Positions 11,883-24,694 of a stretch of 26,250 nucleotides of DNA are shown here, piece after piece. Within the stretch, counting starts at the first letter, position 1. Every line of letters starts with the position of its first letter. The notes under the pieces were generated by a model. That model saw only the letters and a program-made list of their open reading frames with translations. It was not told the origin of the DNA and made no database searches. Source of the DNA: Deltaproteobacteria bacterium RBG_13_61_14. Lineage in GTDB: Bacteria; RBG-13-61-14. The position numbers and the translations under genes are program-made. Location: contig MGQK01000040.1 in assembly GCA_001797815.1 (NCBI GenBank), positions 6,079 to 32,328 of the forward strand, in the 5' to 3' direction.

Positions 11883-12674
11883 CTGAAAGAGACCACCAAT
11901 TTTGCCGAGCTCGGCGCCGGCTTCCTGACCGGACTGAACTCGCTCGGCCCTCTGATCCAGGGCTGGATGAAAATCTCGGGGGCCGGCTCGCGGCCGGCGA
12001 TCCTCCTGAAACTTCAGAACCCCGACAAGAAAGTCCTGATCACTCCCGGCCAGATTCCCCTGGTCAAGGAAGTGGACGGGGCGGATCCGGAAGTGAACGT
12101 GATCATGACCCTGGATGCGGAGATGTTCCATTACCTGATTTGGGGAAAGCTCACTTTTGCCAAGGCCCTGAATGAAAAGGTCCTGCTCATGGACTACACC
12201 CGCACCCTGCCCCCACAAGATCAGGCTTCTGCCGGTCCGGGAATGGCGGGCGAGCCTCTGCAATTTAACAATATTCTTTACGAGATGTTCCTGATCCGGA
12301 TCGGGGCCGGCCGGTTGATTACCGAGAAGACCTTCCCGGAGATCCCGCTGCCCGGAGAACGCCGGCCGGTCCAGGACATCCCTCTGGATCCCGTCCCCCC
12401 GGGTAGCCTGCTCGGTCCCATGGCCAATGCCTTGGCCTTCTTCCTCGGCGGGCTCGGCGGTCTGGTCTTGCGCCCGATCCTCCCCTGGCTCTTGAAGGAG
12501 GATCTGGAAGCGCCCCCGGTTTATTCCACCGTCCCGGACCCCCGACCCCCTATTCCCCCCGCCTCTTCCGGGGTCCGGCTGAAGCTGATGAAGTTTTTCT
12601 TCCGAAAGATTGACATCTTTTCCGCCCTCCAAAATCTGGCCCAGGGCATGCTGGCCACCGGGCCGTTCAAATAA
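11883..12674 (+). CDS. SCP2-like sterol-carrier-domain protein, non-canonical or frameshifted start
   Basis: The frame encodes about 263 aa with an SCP2-like fold: VIMTLDAEMFHYLIWGKLTFAKAL followed by NEKVLLMD resembles the SCP2 core that binds lipids or acyl-CoAs. The C-terminal part is Pro-rich with a hydrophobic GLGGLVLRPILPWLL stretch. No ATG, GTG or TTG occurs in frame before the ATG at 11967, which would cut off a conserved-looking N-terminus (KETTNFAELGAGFLTGLNSL). CTG at 11883 has AAAGGA (11870-11875) seven bases upstream. Alternatively, one extra C in the CCCCC run at 11879-11883 would join the frame to the ATGs at 11839/11851. It sits between the dehydratase pair and the GMC oxidoreductase in the operon. 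Confidence 0.62.
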   Translation: MKETTNFAELGAGFLTGLNSLGPLIQGWMKISGAGSRPAILLKLQNPDKKVLITPGQIPLVKEVDGADPEVNVIMTLDAEMFHYLIWGKLTFAKALNEKVLLMDYTRTLPPQDQASAGPGMAGEPLQFNNILYEMFLIRIGAGRLITEKTFPEIPLPGERRPVQDIPLDPVPPGSLLGPMANALAFFLGGLGGLVLRPILPWLLKEDLEAPPVYSTVPDPRPPIPPASSGVRLKLMKFFFRKIDIFSALQNLAQGMLATGPFK

Positions 12675-16333: not shown

Positions 16334-16391
16334 GACGGGCACTTCTGTAAAATAGGGTTTGGAAGAACCAAATCACAGAAGGAGGCCCGTC
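16334..16391 (+). promoter_or_regulatory. Leader hairpin over the transposase ribosome-binding site
   Basis: GACGGGC (16334-16340) pairs with GCCCGTC (16385-16391) and TTCTGT (16343-16348) with ACAGAA (16375-16380). A small TTTGG/CCAAA hairpin (16358-16372) lies inside. The Shine-Dalgarno AAGGAGG (16379-16385) falls in the 3' side of this structure and the ATG follows immediately. It could keep transposase translation low, for example on read-through transcripts. Confidence 0.6.
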
Positions 16392-17456
16392 ATGGAAAAA
16401 GCGGAAGCGGTCGTGGCATTCGTGGGGATTGATGCTCACAGTGAACATTGTAGTCTGAAGGCGGTGGGAAGGCAAGGGGAGAGTTTGCTGGCGGTGGAGG
16501 TCGCCACCCAGGAGCGGCGGTTGCGGGCGGCGGTGAAGGGGTTGCCGCGGCCGGTGTGGGCGATGGTGGAATCGAGTTCGCTGGCGCCGTTGCTGAAGGA
16601 GTGGCTGGAGTCGGTGGTGGACCGGTTGATTGTGTGCGAGACGCGGGAGAACCGATGGATTGCGCGGAGCGAGGACAAGAGCGATCCGGCGGATGCGGAT
16701 CGGCTGGCGCGGTTGTTGCGGATGGGGGAGTTCCGGCCGGTGCACGTGCCGGGGCGGGCCGGCCTGGAGCGGCGGGAGCTGGTGCGGTTGTATCAGAAGT
16801 CGGTGCGGGACGTGACCCGGCTGAAGAACCGGCTGAAGGCGAAGTACCGGGAGCACGGGGTAGCGGTGAAGGGGGATAAGGTCTATACGGTTCGGCATCG
16901 GGCGAGCTATCTGCGCCAGGTGAAGCAGCCGGCGGTGCGGGCGATGCTGGCGGTGATCTATGAGCAGTTGGATGGAGCCCAGGCGGCGCACTTGAAGATC
17001 TGGGGCCAGTTGTTCGCGCGGCTGCGGACGCTGCCGGCGTATCGGTTGCTGAAGACGATTCCGGGGGTGGGTTCGCGGTTGGGGGCGATGCTGGCGGCGG
17101 GGATCGACGACCCGGAGCGGTTTGCGGGCCCGAATCGGAAGCGGAAGCTGTGGAAGTATAGCGGGCTGGGGGTGCGCAGCCAGTGGTCCTCGCATCCGGA
17201 GCAGGCGCGGGTGAGCGGGTCGCCGTCGGGGAACCGGCTGATGAAGTATGCGGCGCTGAGCGCGGCGCACAATGCGCTGCGGGGGAAGAACCGGTTTTCC
17301 CGGCATTATGCGGAAATGGTTGAGCAAGGAAAAGATCCGGCCATGGCCGAGCGGACCGTGGGGCGGCAGATTTTGGCGACGGCGCTTTCGATGCTGACGA
17401 GCGGCACGGTTTACCGGGAGCCGGAGCCGGGGCGGAGCCCGGTGGAGGAGGTTTGA
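16392..17456 (+). CDS. IS110-family transposase/recombinase (DEDD)
   Basis: A 354-aa DEDD recombinase. The RuvC-like residues are Asp14 (FVGIDAH), Glu60 (MVESSS), Asp98 and Asp101 (SDPADADRLARLL). The C-terminal Transposase_20-type domain carries TIPGVGSRLGAMLAAGIDDPERF and GNRLMKYAALSAAHNAL; the catalytic serine is probably in the SGSPSGN region but I cannot assign it surely. ATG 16392 follows AGAAGGAGG; an upstream in-frame ATG (16359) lies inside the leader hairpin and lacks a ribosome-binding site. Codon use (GCG, CGG, CTG, GTG) differs from neighbouring genes, which prefer GCC and GGC. The frame is intact, so the element may be active. These enzymes recombine DNA under guidance of a bridge RNA. 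Confidence 0.92.
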   Translation: MEKAEAVVAFVGIDAHSEHCSLKAVGRQGESLLAVEVATQERRLRAAVKGLPRPVWAMVESSSLAPLLKEWLESVVDRLIVCETRENRWIARSEDKSDPADADRLARLLRMGEFRPVHVPGRAGLERRELVRLYQKSVRDVTRLKNRLKAKYREHGVAVKGDKVYTVRHRASYLRQVKQPAVRAMLAVIYEQLDGAQAAHLKIWGQLFARLRTLPAYRLLKTIPGVGSRLGAMLAAGIDDPERFAGPNRKRKLWKYSGLGVRSQWSSHPEQARVSGSPSGNRLMKYAALSAAHNALRGKNRFSRHYAEMVEQGKDPAMAERTVGRQILATALSMLTSGTVYREPEPGRSPVEEV

Positions 17457-17790: not shown

Positions 17791-18157
17791 GCTGGTCTTA
17801 GCGACGGTTGAAAAATAACTTTCAAAAAGAAAAGATGTTGCCAAATTGCAATGCAGATTACGCAGATTTAATTCTGATAAACCTTGAACCTGAACTTGAA
17901 CTTGAACTGATTCCTTCTCTTCCCTTTGCCCCTTTGCGGCTTGGCGTGAAACCTCTCTTCCACAGATTTCACGGCTCGACCGAGCTCGCCGAGGTCAGAT
18001 TACACAGATTTTTTCGTTCCTGTGCCTAAAGTCCAAAGCCTAATGTCTAATGCCTTTTCTTTCCTTGTCCACTGCTTTGGGCACTTTTTACTGCCCTAAA
18101 CTCACAACTCAAGCTCTGACCCTACATGATCTAATATATTAATAAGGTTCATTATAT
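17791..18157. other. Intergenic, short repeats, left flank of A+T-rich island
   Basis: No gene is supported. It has ATGCAGATTACGCAGATTTA (about 17851), a hexamer run of TTGAAC/CTGAAC units (about 17884-17908), a CCTTTGCCCCTTTGCGGC segment, and GGCTCGACCGAGCTCGCCGA (about 17972), whose reverse complement shares both ends with a copy near 21623-21690. From about 18120 the sequence becomes A+T-rich. Confidence 0.55.
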
Positions 18158-20722
18158 TTAAAGTATAGAAATCATTTCCCCCTTAATAAATATTGATATA
18201 TCACCTCTCTCGCTACCTACTATTACAATTCCATTATTATTCAATTTAGTTGAATAAAATGCACCCGCCTCATGTCTCTTTCCCCGATTTTCCTTATATA
18301 ACTTTTGTTCAGTATCATAAGGAATAGACACTTTATTTCTATTAGGAACAGAAAGTGTTTGACCATAAGCAATAATTTTATTATTTTGAGAATCTACAAT
18401 GACAGCTCCATCACTTTTTAGATAGTCATTAATCATGTTTACTTTTTGCATATTATTTATTGATGATAACCTAATTGGTTCCATTAGCCATTTATGTCTA
18501 TCCTTGTGCCCTAAAAAGCTTTTATCATTTCTAATAATACATAGAGAGCAACCGTGATCAGATGTTAGAATTGTATGCATTACAAGGCAAATAGATAGAT
18601 AAATTGCTTGATTTGATATTCCTCCCGCTAATGACAGTACATCCTTCCATTTCGAATTCATTTCCTTATAATGTTTATCAAGAATATATCTTTTAAATGA
18701 TATTGGCATTCCAGATTGCCTTGTAAATAACTTTGTTTCATTTCCACTTATTATACATAATGCATTTCTTCTTGGAAATATAAATATACCAAAAAACTCG
18801 CATTCAGAGCATATTTTAGCAAATGGAATTATGCTAATAGGAATTGGGTATTCATAATATTGTTTATGATTGAATTGAATAATATTGTTGTGATTTTTAA
18901 ATATTGGGCCCAATATATTTTCATTTAAGTAAACAAAATATTCTCCACCAAGATGTATAGACTTTTTTAATTCTTCAATATTCTTTGTTCTATTTCGATA
19001 TGGATCAACTGAAATATTATACCTATTTTTAAATTCCTTCTTATTATCATTTACAATGATAAATGATAATTCTTTATATAACTTTTCGGCTGCCTTTGCA
19101 GGATTTCTTGCTGTTATCGCAATATCATATAACTTATTACAAATTTCATTAAATTGAATGCTGGTTGCTTTTTCTTCTAATTCAATATATTTCTTCAGCA
19201 CCTGTATTGATTTGCTATGTCCAGCGCATTCTAAGATATTAGACATCAACCATCTTTCATTTTCATCTTTTGGCTTTTTAATAATTGTGCTAATATTTTT
19301 TATAGCTATTTTGAATTTTCTATTTATATTACCAGTTTTTCCATAGTTTTTAGGATTTTCAAGAAAGCTAGATATGCAAATTGGATGATTTGTAATACCT
19401 TTTTTTGTCATTTTTAGAAGGCCTGTTTCAGAAATTATAAATTTATCTCGCTTATTAATCTCCTTTAAAATTGAAATCAAGGATGTTTCAGACATTATGC
19501 ATATTTCTCCGAATGTCAAAAAATTATCCTTTTTTCTAATAATCTTTTTGAATATCTTTTTTATATCTTTTTCTATTATCCCTTTATCTTCATCAAAAGG
19601 GCCTGATTTCAGGTGATCTCCAAATCCACAATTCAGCGAGGCTTTATAAAAATCTTTTGTCAAATCTAATATTTTATTACCTCCTATTTGATATTTAGTA
19701 TCAAGATGTTCAATTAATTTATCATCAATACCATCTTTCCCTTTTAAAAGCCCAGCTAAAGAACACGCAATTGATCCAACTGAATCAGCATCTCCTCCAA
19801 CGCAACCTATCAAATGATAGGTATCATCAAAATTACCTTTTGTAATTAGTAAAATACCAATACTAGTTAATATAACATCTATAGCATTTGTTGTTCCACC
19901 AATAGATAATACCTGTTCGAAATATCCAATTTTAATTAACTGTTGAAGAATAATAAACTTATCTCTGAATTTTGAGCAAGCATTCTGTATTTCTTTTCTT
20001 TTCTTTATTGGTTTTATCATTTCGCTTTGTTCCAAATCATCAACAGATTTATTTATAACATCTACCAGTTGATTAAAGCTAAAGGATGTTTCAGTAAATA
20101 GTAATTTAATAATTCCAGCCAATACTGACGTTGAAACTAATGCATCTGGACCATTGTGTGTTATACTAGAATAAAAGTATCCAGCTGGAATAGGATAATC
20201 GCTAAATCCCCTAAAAAGTAAAAAGGGTGCAAGCCTTGTAATAGGACCACAACTATTCGACTTTGAAGCAGAATATTCTTGTGTAGGATATTTTACAAAA
20301 TGTTTAGCTGCTTCTTCAGTAGTAGTACCTGCATATCTTGTAGCGTATCTATTTACCTCATGCTCCTTTAGTTTCAATTTCTTTTTAATAGAACCTCTGC
20401 GTCTCTCACATAAATTATACCAATATGCAAGAGCTCTTCTTACTACAATAAATGGCGTAGGATCATCCGGATAATGATTAATAAAATATTTAATTTGACA
20501 AAGGTTTAACATTGTATCATCCGTATAGCTACCTTCTGGTAGCTTAGAAAGAGGGTGCATTACATCTGGAGATAGAGGGGGTATTTCGGGAAAGTTAAAT
20601 ATTACATTATATCCAATAACTTTTCTTGGAACAAACTCTGCGGGCTTTCCGCAAGCATCACCGATAGCTCCTCCAAGAATACAACCTTGGAATTTGTCTA
20701 AAACTGTAATTTTGGAAATCAT
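18158..20722 (-). CDS. ADP-ribosylglycohydrolase (DraG-like) fused to DAC/DisA_N-like domain
   Basis: An 854-aa two-enzyme-like fusion. Residues about 5-370 are an ADP-ribosylglycohydrolase: GAIGDACGKPAEF at the start, metal ligands in YTDDT (Asp68, Asp69) and GGDADS (Asp311, Asp313), so the hydrolase site looks complete. The middle (about 400-600) is Lys/Ile-rich and helical, possibly with a winged-helix segment. The last ~250 residues resemble a diadenylate cyclase domain: HGCSLCII, DGAVIVD (Asp771), GKRHEAGA (Arg816-His-Glu) and GSERGDISIFIKGE, matching the DGA, RHR and SEE-G-IS positions. The third RHR residue is Glu, so the domain may bind rather than make a cyclic dinucleotide. Its ATG overlaps the stop of the upstream GXGXG gene. 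Very A+T-rich, unlike the surroundings, suggesting transfer. Cytoplasmic; partner and target unknown. Confidence 0.8.
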   Translation of the reverse strand: MISKITVLDKFQGCILGGAIGDACGKPAEFVPRKVIGYNVIFNFPEIPPLSPDVMHPLSKLPEGSYTDDTMLNLCQIKYFINHYPDDPTPFIVVRRALAYWYNLCERRRGSIKKKLKLKEHEVNRYATRYAGTTTEEAAKHFVKYPTQEYSASKSNSCGPITRLAPFLLFRGFSDYPIPAGYFYSSITHNGPDALVSTSVLAGIIKLLFTETSFSFNQLVDVINKSVDDLEQSEMIKPIKKRKEIQNACSKFRDKFIILQQLIKIGYFEQVLSIGGTTNAIDVILTSIGILLITKGNFDDTYHLIGCVGGDADSVGSIACSLAGLLKGKDGIDDKLIEHLDTKYQIGGNKILDLTKDFYKASLNCGFGDHLKSGPFDEDKGIIEKDIKKIFKKIIRKKDNFLTFGEICIMSETSLISILKEINKRDKFIISETGLLKMTKKGITNHPICISSFLENPKNYGKTGNINRKFKIAIKNISTIIKKPKDENERWLMSNILECAGHSKSIQVLKKYIELEEKATSIQFNEICNKLYDIAITARNPAKAAEKLYKELSFIIVNDNKKEFKNRYNISVDPYRNRTKNIEELKKSIHLGGEYFVYLNENILGPIFKNHNNIIQFNHKQYYEYPIPISIIPFAKICSECEFFGIFIFPRRNALCIISGNETKLFTRQSGMPISFKRYILDKHYKEMNSKWKDVLSLAGGISNQAIYLSICLVMHTILTSDHGCSLCIIRNDKSFLGHKDRHKWLMEPIRLSSINNMQKVNMINDYLKSDGAVIVDSQNNKIIAYGQTLSVPNRNKVSIPYDTEQKLYKENRGKRHEAGAFYSTKLNNNGIVIVGSERGDISIFIKGEMISIL

Positions 20723-21321
20723 ATCGATATTTTAACCTTTTTACAAAGATAGTTAGAAACATTTTCCATGGATTCCCTAATTCTTCTATTAATTTTAACA
20801 CGTGGTATATTGGAACACTTATTTACTTTAACTAAATAATGGAGATTACTACTAAAATCCTTAAAATCTTTAATTTCAAACGACTTTTGATTGCAAGGAA
20901 CTCTTATACCAAAAATATATATGCTTGGAGTCGATTTTTTGCATCCAAAAAGATGTCCTCCTATTTCACCTGTGCAAAATATTCTTGCAGGAGATTTTAT
21001 ATTTATCAAAAGGTCAATATTACCATCAACATATATCATACCATTATCAACATTAGAAATTCTATCCACATTCCCTTTAACGTAAAGGTAGCCACCAGAC
21101 ATGCCATTCCCAGTCCACCTTCCAAGGTTACCTTTAACCAAAATTAATCCATTCGATAAATTTGTGCCAACACCATTTAAAATTTTTCCATTCACAGAAA
21201 CAACTAAATACTCTGGTTCCTTCAGGTCGTCAGCTACCTGTGAAAGGACAATGGGAGGTAATTGTGGAGAAAATGATTTCTCAATCTCCGATGATTGCTT
21301 TAAATCTACAAGTATTGCCAT
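20719..21321 (-). CDS. GXGXG beta-helix domain protein (FwdC/GltS-C-like)
   Basis: A 200-aa protein whose centre carries repeating turns of the GXGXG right-handed beta-helix found in glutamate synthase C-termini and formylmethanofuran dehydrogenase subunit C: LVKGNLGRWTGNGMSGGYLY, then VKGNVDRISNVDNGMIYVDG, then FCTGEIGGHLFGC. No amidotransferase or redox partner of those enzymes is nearby, so it is a stand-alone scaffold here. The ATG at 21321 has AAAGGAG six bases upstream, and the stop overlaps the ATG of the DraG-DAC gene (ATGA), implying co-translation and probably a physical or functional pair. It is the first gene of the A+T-rich island operon. Role unknown. Confidence 0.75.
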   Translation of the reverse strand: MAILVDLKQSSEIEKSFSPQLPPIVLSQVADDLKEPEYLVVSVNGKILNGVGTNLSNGLILVKGNLGRWTGNGMSGGYLYVKGNVDRISNVDNGMIYVDGNIDLLINIKSPARIFCTGEIGGHLFGCKKSTPSIYIFGIRVPCNQKSFEIKDFKDFSSNLHYLVKVNKCSNIPRVKINRRIRESMENVSNYLCKKVKISI

Positions 21322-22122
21322 CTTTCACTCCTTTAGATTGTCGATTAAGCTATTTCCCTTTTCGGAATTCTGGAATTCGGGGGACACCATACCTAACTCG
21401 CCTGATGGGTGAAATTGGAGAAGTAGTGCACCCCGCTGAAAGGCGGGGCAGGCAGTGCACAGTGGACAGTGATTTTGAAAGAAGAGGTTCACGCCAAGGC
21501 GCAAAGACTCAAAGTTAAGGAGAAAGAGGGAAGAATTTGACGCCAAGAAGAATAAGCCGCGAATGGTTGTTCCTTTGCGACTTTGCTTCTTTGCCGTTGG
21601 GCGGGAGATAGGCAGGGGCATGGACTTCGGCGAGCTCCCCTCGGCAAGCTCGGGGCCTGAGTTTTTCGAAGGCAGTCGAGCCGCATGTCCTGTCTGTATG
21701 GAACTGCTATCTCCTTCGAAAGCTTGAACCCTTGGCATCTTGGCGTCTTTGCGTGAAACTCCCCGCTTCTGCTTGGGTTCCGGCTCGGCCGGGTTAGGGA
21801 TCATAAGCCTCTCCTTTTCCTTGCCAGGATGGGAAAAGGCTATCAGGGTTCATGAAGCTTGTCAAGAGGTTTTTTGGGCTTAAACCCACCCTTCCAAGAA
21901 AAGTTCACAGTTGGTGGTTCGCGGGTGCGGGCACCCGCGCCCCTAAGGTCAGCCACGCCCCTAAGGTCGTTGATTGACAAAGAATTTAGTGCCCTTCGTG
22001 CCCTTCGTGGATGATAAGAAAGTAGGCAGTAGGCAGGCAAGAAGAAGATTACCCTTCGTGTCTTTGAGCCTTGGTGGTAAAATATTTTCCTCCTCTTTCT
22101 CTGTGTCTCTGTGGTGAAAAAA
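21322..22122. repeat. Intergenic zone with dispersed repeats, right flank of island
   Basis: No credible gene in 801 bp. It holds CACGCCAAGGCGCAAAGACT-type repeats (about 21491), inverted versions (CTTGGCGTCTTTGCGTG, about 21738; CCCTTCGTGCCCTTCGTGG, about 21992; TCTGTGTCTCTGTGG, about 22099) and GTAGGCAGTAGGCAGGCA (about 22022). There is also a GCGGGTG/CACCCGC hairpin (21921-21938) followed by a direct repeat GCCCCTAAGGTC (21939-21950 and 21957-21968), and a GACTTCGGCGAGCTC ... GTCGAGCC element (about 21623-21692). Confidence 0.65.
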
Positions 22123-23244: not shown

Positions 23245-23281
23245 CAGGAATTGACTATTCCTGAGCGCGGTGCTCTATAAT
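23245..23281 (+). promoter_or_regulatory. Promoter with overlapping operator-like inverted repeat
   Basis: TTGACT (23251-23256) and a perfect TATAAT (23276-23281) are 19 bases apart, slightly long for sigma70. The perfect inverted repeat CAGGAAT (23245-23251) / ATTCCTG (23257-23263), with spacer TGACT, straddles the -35 box and looks like a repressor site. It precedes the CrtI-like gene by 33 bp. Confidence 0.5.
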
Positions 23282-23314
23282 AAAGCGGACCGGGTTCGGG
23301 AAAAAGGGGGAAAG

Positions 23315-24694
23315 ATGGCCAGTCAGGCGGACACGGTGATCATCGGCGGGGGAGTGGGAGGCACGGCCCTGGGTGCGCTCCTGGCCTCGGCCGGGCAACG
23401 GGTGATCCTGGTGGAGAAGAACCGCATCATCGGGGGACGGTGCGCTTCCTACACCCGGGACGGGTTTGTGGTGGACGTGGGGGTTCACCTGTTCGGCCTG
23501 GGCGAGAAGGGTCCGCTGGGCGAAGTGTGCCGCCGGGCCGGGGAGCCGGAGGCCATCTCCTGGGTCCTGGCCCGGCACCCCCGGGTCTCGGTGCATTTCC
23601 GGGGCCAGACCCAGGCCTTTACCCGGGAGATGATGAGCGCCAATGTCAAAAAGAATGAGTTGGGCAACCTGGCCCGGATCATGCTCCAGGTGATGCAGAT
23701 GAAAGAAGAGGAGTTGAGCCGGCTGTGGCATACCCCGCTTCGGGAATGGCTGGCCGGCTTCACCGCCGACCCGTCGGTGCACGGCCTGTTCGCGATGCTC
23801 TGCGGCATCTATTTTTGCATCACCCCGGAGGTGGCCAGCGCCGCGGAATTTATCCGGACCCTGCGGGAGGTGATGGCGGCCCGGAGTTCGGCTTATCCTC
23901 GCGGGGGCTGCGGGGCGATTCCCCGGGCTTTTCAGCGGATCCTGGAAAAGCACGGCGGCGAGGCGCGGTTGGGATGTCCGGCGGAAAAGATCCTGATCGA
24001 GCAGGGCCGGGCCCGGGGCGTGATGGCCGGGGGCGAGGTGATCGAAGCCGGCCGGGTGGTGTCCAACGCGGACATCAAAGCCACCATCGGCGGCCTGGCC
24101 GGGGCCGAGCACTTCCCCTCCGACTATGTCCAGCGGATCCAGGGGCTGACTTGGACCGCGCACGTGGTGGCTTTGAAAGTGGCTCTGGATACCAAGGTCA
24201 CGGACCAGAAGATGATCATGTATCTGCCGGACTTGAGCGAGGAGGAGATGGCGAAACTCCAGAGGCAATACCTGGAGGGGGGATCCCTGCCCATGGTGGC
24301 CGGGGGCATGCTCAACTCGCCCACCAACTTCGATCCCGACCTCGCTCCCCCTGGCCGGCAGTTGATCTTCTTCGGCACCCGGTGCGAGCGCCATCAAGAC
24401 TGGGGAAAATGGGGAGAGATCATGATGGATGCTCTCTGCCAGGTATTCCCCGGCATCGAAAAGCACGTGTTGTGGACCGCCCTAGACTCGCCCGACACGG
24501 TGGAGCGCTATGCGGGGGAAGAGGGCAATGTCATCGGCGTGGGCCAGACCGTGGACCAGATCCATGAGCGCCGGCCCCATCACCAGACCCCGGTTAAGGA
24601 TCTTTTCCTGTGTAGCGCCGAGGCCGGCGGCCATGGCATCGGCACCGAACTCGCCGCATCCTCCGCCCTCGAGCTGGCGGAAAAACTGCTTTGA
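23315..24694 (+). CDS. CrtI-like phytoene desaturase-family FAD oxidoreductase
   Basis: A 459-aa amino-oxidase/CrtI-superfamily flavoprotein. It opens with VIIGGGVGGTALGALLASAG, the acidic LVEKN end and the IGGRCASY motif, and has the C-terminal FLCSAEAGGHGIGTELAAS flavin motif typical of carotenoid desaturases and isomerases. ATG 23315 is used because GGGGGAAAG lies just upstream and the promoter -10 (23276-23281) would fall inside any longer version. It is followed 28 bp later by a DUF422/CruF-like membrane protein, which supports a carotenoid or other polyisoprenoid pathway. Whether it desaturates, isomerises or saturates is not shown by sequence. Confidence 0.85.
   Translation: MASQADTVIIGGGVGGTALGALLASAGQRVILVEKNRIIGGRCASYTRDGFVVDVGVHLFGLGEKGPLGEVCRRAGEPEAISWVLARHPRVSVHFRGQTQAFTREMMSANVKKNELGNLARIMLQVMQMKEEELSRLWHTPLREWLAGFTADPSVHGLFAMLCGIYFCITPEVASAAEFIRTLREVMAARSSAYPRGGCGAIPRAFQRILEKHGGEARLGCPAEKILIEQGRARGVMAGGEVIEAGRVVSNADIKATIGGLAGAEHFPSDYVQRIQGLTWTAHVVALKVALDTKVTDQKMIMYLPDLSEEEMAKLQRQYLEGGSLPMVAGGMLNSPTNFDPDLAPPGRQLIFFGTRCERHQDWGKWGEIMMDALCQVFPGIEKHVLWTALDSPDTVERYAGEEGNVIGVGQTVDQIHERRPHHQTPVKDLFLCSAEAGGHGIGTELAASSALELAEKLL

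What the first reader, a model, noticed from the sequence alone, without database searches (positions are those of the whole stretch)
18158..21321. Undescribed-looking two-gene module: GXGXG beta-helix protein plus DraG-ADP-ribosylglycohydrolase/DAC fusion
Seen: two overlapping genes (ATGA) in an A+T-rich island; the larger has complete-looking DraG metal motifs (Asp68/69, Asp311/313) and a C-terminal domain with DGA (771), RHE (816-818) and SERG-IS motifs in diadenylate-cyclase order. Known: DAC domains make c-di-AMP, and DAC-derived domains have been predicted as nucleotide sensors in conflict systems; DraG-type enzymes remove or hydrolyse ADP-ribose. Inference: nucleotide sensing or synthesis coupled to ADP-ribose chemistry, perhaps in phage defence or stress, with the GXGXG protein as scaffold or partner. 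I know of no described system with these three parts.
Basis: partly seen in the sequence, partly recalled or inferred. Interest (0 to 1): 0.88.

Follow-up and report, generated by a model that had tools for sequence, protein, structure and literature searches.

The report
ADP-ribose hydrolase fused to nucleotide-binding domain
A foreign-looking pair of bacterial genes joins an enzyme that removes ADP-ribose tags to a domain related to the enzymes that make the signal c-di-AMP; no second example was found in the databases searched, so it may link nucleotide signalling to removal of ADP-ribose, but its function is untested.

Summary
Two genes on the minus strand (18158-20722, 854 aa; 20719-21321, 200 aa; ATGA overlap) lie in a 27-37% GC island of a ~60% GC genome (GC3 19-24% against about 83% for neighbours). 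The large protein is an ADP-ribosylglycohydrolase (residues 13-334, Pfam E 1e-32; predicted fold matches MJ1187, Tri1, DraG and ARH3, metal residues intact) fused to a real but divergent DAC domain (718-849, 36.6 bits, cut-off 27). The small protein is only weakly related to the GXGXG/FwdC beta-helix group. DAC ligand residues (D771, G814, R816, H817, S837) are kept. By profile comparison the domain is about as close to the DAC domains of Pfam's 'probable sensor' (DACN) proteins as to c-di-AMP synthases; the tree does not settle it. The host has its own DacZ. No fusion turned up in about 800 genomes, IMG/VR, phages or plasmids; both GTDB pattern scans were incomplete. Most likely: a laterally acquired accessory module in which a DAC-derived nucleotide-binding domain gates de-ADP-ribosylation. 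An active cyclase is not excluded. Defence is plausible but unsupported by context: no defence genes nearby, no PADLOC match. The architecture is new as far as these searches reach; the parts are known.

The parts
20719..21321 (-). First gene of the pair, 200 aa; distant relative of the GXGXG/FwdC (formylmethanofuran dehydrogenase subunit C) beta-helix group over residues 36-103
   Evidence: TIGR03122 E 5.7e-10 but far below the equivalog cut-off; PF01493 weak; weak hits in 10 other genomes, mostly frames of 250-276 aa, best 40% identity over 45 aa; all-beta low-confidence model
18158..20722 (-). Second gene, 854 aa, ADP-ribosylglycohydrolase-DAC fusion, start codon overlaps the stop of the first gene (ATGA)
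19721..20686 (-). ADP-ribosylglycohydrolase (DraG/ARH) domain, residues 13-334, metal residues T67 D68 D69, D311 D313 S314, plus E29
   Evidence: PF03747 1.1e-32; model pLDDT mostly above 80 and Foldseek E 1.2e-10 to MJ1187, 8.5e-10 to Tri1, 4.8e-9 to R. rubrum DraG; D68, D311, D313 invariant in 19 aligned sequences
19400..19590 (-). Possible winged-helix-like segment, residues about 378-440 (inference only)
   Evidence: predicted helix-helix-helix-strand-strand order at pLDDT 45-55; no Pfam match above threshold
18176..18571 (-). DAC (DisA_N) domain, residues 718-849: HGCSL 723-727, DGA 771-773, GKRHE 814-818, SER 837-839
   Evidence: PF02457 3.8e-9, 36.6 bits over cut-off 27; hhalign to DACN-type and CdaA DAC profiles
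16359..17456 (+). IS110-family transposase gene beside the island (GC 0.66, GC3 0.83); not part of the module, possible agent of past rearrangement
   Evidence: PF01548 and PF02371; composition

Best explanation
A horizontally acquired two-gene accessory module. The N-terminal ARH domain hydrolyses ADP-ribose from a macromolecule or small ADP-ribosylated target. The C-terminal DAC-derived domain binds an adenine nucleotide or cyclic dinucleotide (ATP, c-di-AMP or a related signal) as a dimerising sensor, and this binding switches or localises the hydrolase. The small beta-rich GXGXG-like protein is a co-translated partner, probably a scaffold or targeting subunit. Shown: the two genes, the fusion, intact hydrolase residues, DAC homology, foreign composition, and an own DacZ in the host that could supply c-di-AMP. 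Inferred: that the DAC binds rather than makes a nucleotide, that it regulates the hydrolase, and that the partner acts with it. Not shown: a role in defence.
For: ARH and DAC domains above curated thresholds in one uninterrupted frame. Hydrolase fold and metal residues intact. The DAC scores 40.7 bits in the genome-wide scan against 85.9 for the host's own DacZ; in other genomes the DACs scoring about 23-53 bits are mostly long sensor-type proteins, while synthase-like ones score about 66-157. hhalign aligns the window DAC to four DACN-type proteins over 140 columns (E 2.9e-6) and to CdaA over 69 (E 1.2e-5); with three sequences each, DACN 40.6 over 126 columns, CdaA 35.9 over 69, DacZ 29.6 over 76. 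It shares HGC[ST]L with a DACND-DACNH-DAC protein (L107). ATGA coupling and GC3 19-24% against about 83%. Host DacZ present.
Against: The larger canonical CdaA profile (12 sequences) scores slightly higher (48.0) than the 4-sequence DACN profile (44.6), though over fewer columns. The tree places the window domain beside the DACN group with support of only 54/66 on a long branch. No Pfam DACN N-terminal sensor domain is recognisable before the DAC. No homologue shows conservation of the arrangement, so the pair could be a lineage accident. No defence context.
Confidence: 0.4

Rival explanations
1. The DAC domain is an active diadenylate cyclase and the protein is bifunctional: ADP-ribose binding or release by the ARH domain controls c-di-AMP synthesis (ARH as input, DAC as output).
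For: CdaA active-site side chains listed in PMC7288161 map to L727 (alignment ambiguous), D771, R816, H817 and S837. The metal-binding Glu of CdaA is R839 here, but the DisA of G053 also has SQR and DacZ has SES, so that change alone does not imply loss. The third RHR residue is not listed as a ligand and is S, A, W or I in other DACs.
Against: Low DAC score like the DACN group. GALI is replaced by HGCSL as in sensor-type DACs, Thr102 is Lys815, and RHR is RHE. An RHR-to-AAA change abolishes ATP binding in M. tuberculosis DacA (PMC3328451), so effects of changes here are uncertain. The host already has DacZ.
Confidence: 0.25
2. A host counter-measure against ADP-ribosylation by phage or competitor toxins, comparable in role to the ARG-centred systems predicted in PMC9503650, with the DAC as infection or stress sensor.
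For: Lone ARH without an adjacent ADP-ribosyltransferase, in a foreign island, matches the logic of PMC9503650 section 3.8; Tri1-type immunity ARHs are among the structural neighbours.
Against: None of the partners of those systems (Nudix or WYL regulator, phosphatase, chaperone, ARPP) was recognised here; no PADLOC match; neighbours are metabolic genes and transposases.
Confidence: 0.2
3. A metabolic regulator in the style of DraG, for example controlling nitrogen or one-carbon metabolism through the GXGXG/FwdC-like partner.
For: Best named relative of the small protein is FwdC, and GXGXG domains occur in glutamate synthase; DraG is a hydrolase in nitrogen control (established knowledge).
Against: Only residues 36-103 match, far below the equivalog cut-off. 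No nitrogenase, PII, Fwd or glutamate synthase gene was recognised among the window genes tested. Atypical base composition suggests an accessory rather than a core role.
Confidence: 0.1
4. A fortuitous or decaying fusion in a mobile fragment, without a coupled function.
For: Single example; the neighbouring IS110 gene and a repeat-rich intergenic region show local rearrangement.
Against: Both frames are intact and overlap by ATGA with a good ribosome site, and both domains keep their key residues.
Confidence: 0.05

Closest known systems
DraG/ARH ADP-ribosylglycohydrolases (PF03747): DraG, MJ1187, ARH3, Tri1
   Same: Same fold and complete binuclear-metal motif; Foldseek E 1e-10 to 1e-7
   Different: Those compared are proteins of about 280-370 aa; here about 480 further residues with a C-terminal DAC domain
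Diadenylate cyclases CdaA, DisA, DacZ (PF02457)
   Same: DAC family by Pfam above cut-off; DGA, G-x-RH and SE motifs
   Different: Divergent: HGCSL for GALI, K for T, E for the last R of RHR, R for the metal Glu of CdaA; at the C-terminus of an ARH; synthesis unproven
DACN-type proteins (Pfam DACND, DACNH, DACNG, DACNK, DACNV 'probable sensor domain' plus DAC)
   Same: DAC of similar divergence, HGC[ST]L and RG-x-R-[HY] features, longest profile alignment
   Different: No DACN sensor domain recognised before the window DAC; none of the DACN proteins seen carries an ARH
ARG-centred host systems predicted against viral ADP-ribosylation (PMC9503650)
   Same: ARH without adjacent ADP-ribosyltransferase, with accessory genes
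   Different: No regulator, phosphatase, chaperone or ARPP; that paper's main text contains no mention of DisA or GXGXG
FwdC / GXGXG (TIGR03122, PF01493)
   Same: Detectable similarity over about 70 residues
   Different: Below both curated cut-offs; no Fwd or glutamate synthase context

Membership tests
ADP-ribosylglycohydrolase (PF03747) | Profile match above the gathering score over the full domain | tested here: met
   114.3 bits, cut-off 26.2, positions 1-286 of 287
ADP-ribosylglycohydrolase (PF03747) | Metal residues T-D-D and D-x-D-[ST] | tested here: met
   T67 D68 D69, D311 D313 S314
ADP-ribosylglycohydrolase (PF03747) | Hydrolysis of an ADP-ribose bond | not testable with these tools
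   needs purified protein
DAC domain (PF02457) | Profile match above the gathering score | tested here: met
   36.6 bits, cut-off 27, positions 7-118 of 119
DAC domain (PF02457) | DAC fold | tested here: inconclusive
   AlphaFold2 without C-terminal homologues, pLDDT mostly under 50
Active diadenylate cyclase | GALI, DGAhh, GxRHRxA, (V/I)SEE motifs (PMC7288161) | tested here: inconclusive
   DGAVI met; GKRHEAG and GSER partly; GALI replaced by HGCSL; other DAC classes also vary
Active diadenylate cyclase | c-di-AMP synthesis | not testable with these tools
   needs assay
DACN sensor proteins | A DACNx domain N-terminal to the DAC | tested here: not met
   no DACN family at E up to 10
DACN sensor proteins | DAC domain groups with DACN DACs | tested here: inconclusive
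   weak grouping 54/66; profile comparison mildly in favour
GXGXG / FwdC family | Match above the curated cut-off | tested here: not met
   PF01493 17.1 of 32.5 bits; TIGR03122 38.9 of 130.65 bits
ARG-centred counter-ADP-ribosylation systems (PMC9503650) | ARH with Nudix/WYL regulator, phosphatase or chaperone genes | tested here: not met
   none among Pfam matches of the module or of the window genes tested
Known anti-phage system (PADLOC) | Match to a PADLOC model | tested here: not met
   0 families for either protein at E up to 1

The most novel reading that the evidence does not exclude
A first example of direct coupling, within one protein, of cyclic-di-AMP-type nucleotide signalling and reversal of ADP-ribosylation: the DAC domain makes or senses the nucleotide and the ARH domain removes or reads ADP-ribose, with a dedicated beta-helix partner, possibly as a stress or phage-response switch.
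Probability: 0.3. Interest if true: 0.8.

Novelty: new variant of a known kind. Interest (0 to 1): 0.55.

Why it matters
ADP-ribosylation and cyclic dinucleotide signalling both matter in stress responses and conflict, and no paper in the library searched holds both 'ADP-ribosylglycohydrolase' and 'c-di-AMP'. A protein carrying both activities, or the second as a sensor of the first, would give a directly testable link: one purified protein, two assays. It would also show another use of DAC-derived domains outside c-di-AMP synthesis.

Tried and rejected
Searches for a second example, all negative for the fusion: full protein in 98 genomes; C-terminal 280 aa in 386 genomes (its one extra hit, L010, is an ABC transporter ATPase by its sequence, rejected); full protein in 39, 2 and 398 genomes of other phyla; plasmids and phages; IMG/VR. 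Absence is therefore not proven. Looking in IMG/VR for DACs to deepen the structure alignment failed. The GXGXG model gave no significant PDB match. Argument rejected: 'RHE means dead enzyme'. The third RHR residue is not a listed ATP ligand and varies in other DACs. Argument rejected: 'DACN proteins sit in defence islands', since the neighbours of the ones fetched here are ordinary genes or unrecognised. A same-order check for an empty site failed because the flanking gene has no close orthologue in G001 or G002. The 44-nt 75% inverted repeat flanking the island (17919-17962, 21476-21519) was considered as an element end, but similar repeats occur at other places in the same intergenic regions, so it is more likely a dispersed host repeat.

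Full report
OBSERVATION. On the minus strand, 20719-21321 encodes 200 aa and 18158-20722 encodes 854 aa; the stop of the first and the start of the second overlap as ATGA. The first gene has AAAGGAG seven bases before its ATG. GC falls from about 0.60 to 0.24-0.41 across 18000-21400, and GC3 is 0.19 and 0.24 against 0.80-0.83 in four other window genes. The pair is therefore foreign to this genome by composition. To the left lies an IS110-type transposase gene; the other neighbours that Pfam recognises are metabolic genes (nitronate monooxygenase-like, 2-hydroxyglutaryl-CoA dehydratase-like, FAD oxidoreductases, carotenoid synthesis), an APH-family phosphotransferase, a polyketide-cyclase-like protein and a Y1 transposase.

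THE HYDROLASE. Residues 13-334 match ADP_ribosyl_GH end to end (1.1e-32). In an alignment with 18 homologues from other genomes and viral contigs, D68, D311, D313, G309, G310, T188 and H189 are invariant, and E29, T67, D69 and T70 are kept here. The AlphaFold2 model of this part is confident, and its best PDB matches are MJ1187, Tri1, DraG and ARH3. An active hydrolase is the natural expectation; its substrate is unknown.

THE DAC DOMAIN. Residues 718-849 match PF02457 at 36.6 bits (39.4 when the C-terminal part is scanned alone), above the cut-off of 27. The fold could not be confirmed by prediction because no C-terminal homologue was available. CdaA uses Leu31, Asp71, Thr102, Arg103, His104, Ser122 and Glu124 side chains for ATP and metal (PMC7288161). 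The window has L727 (alignment ambiguous), D771, K815, R816, H817, S837 and R839. The two changes do not prove inactivity: the DisA of G053 has SQR, DacZ has SES, and the position before RH is variable among DACs. A scan of 290 genomes with PF02457, and a full listing for 25 of them, show synthase-like DACs at about 66-157 bits and a second class at about 23-53 bits; most of the fetched members of that class carry Pfam 'probable sensor' domains DACND, DACNG, DACNH, DACNK or DACNV. The window domain, 40.7 bits, falls in the second class. One of that class (L107) has HGCTL where synthases have IGAL and the window has HGCSL. hhalign gives 140 aligned columns to the DACN profile and 69 to CdaA; with three sequences each the DACN score is also the higher, while a deeper CdaA set scores slightly higher than four DACN sequences. 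A maximum-likelihood tree puts the window beside the DACN group with only 54/66 support and long branches. I read this as mild evidence for a sensor-type DAC, not as proof. No DACN domain is recognisable ahead of the DAC. The host genome has a second DAC, a DacZ with the DacZ_P domain, so c-di-AMP is probably made in this cell independently of the module.

THE MIDDLE AND THE PARTNER. Residues about 378-440 have a predicted helix-helix-helix-strand-strand order at low confidence, suggestive of a winged helix; this is a guess. The 200-aa protein is a distant relative of FwdC/GXGXG over residues 36-103 only and lies below all curated cut-offs. Its model is all-beta and its best fold matches are non-significant, many of them beta-helix proteins, FhcC among them.

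DISTRIBUTION. No second fusion was found in roughly 800 genomes, IMG/VR, phages or plasmids. Lone hydrolases at 22-35% identity were the only relatives found there.

MECHANISM. Most likely the DAC-derived domain binds an adenine nucleotide signal and gates or localises the hydrolase, with the small protein as partner (0.4). An active cyclase driven by the hydrolase domain is the main rival (0.25). A counter-ADP-ribosylation defence role in the sense of PMC9503650 fits the lone ARH and the foreign island, but no partner of those systems is present and PADLOC finds nothing.

NOVELTY. The parts are known; the combination was not found in the sequence collections searched, and no paper in the open library holds both 'ADP-ribosylglycohydrolase' and 'c-di-AMP'. 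That is absence in the searches made, not proof of absence. I file it as a new variant of a known kind.

Noticed in passing
L007:1462-2445 (minus strand): The host's own diadenylate cyclase is of the DacZ type with a DacZ_P domain; DacZ is best known from archaea (own knowledge).
   Followed up: partly
L109:2692-3882: A divergent DAC protein with no Pfam DACN domain; its longest open frame (from 2614) overlaps the end of an L-lactate permease gene (906-2621), suggesting translational coupling of a DAC-like protein to a transporter.
   Followed up: no
L104:2449-4206: A DACNG-DACNH-DAC protein whose fetched neighbours are ordinary genes (EngA-like GTPase, ABC transporter), not an obvious defence island.
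   Followed up: partly
window:16087-16170: About four tandem 21-bp units (CCCCATTCTGCACGCCAACCA type) just left of the IS110 transposase gene.
   Followed up: no
window:15289-15619 and 21579-22082: Dispersed intergenic repeats of the 'AAAGACACGAAGG' and 'CTTGGCGTGAAAC' kind lie on both sides of the island; a 44-nt imperfect inverted pair (17919-17962, 21476-21519) brackets it.
   Followed up: partly
window:5428-7239, 23255-24466, 11967-12674: Long high-GC open frames of 603, 403 and 235 aa without any Pfam match at the thresholds used.
   Followed up: no
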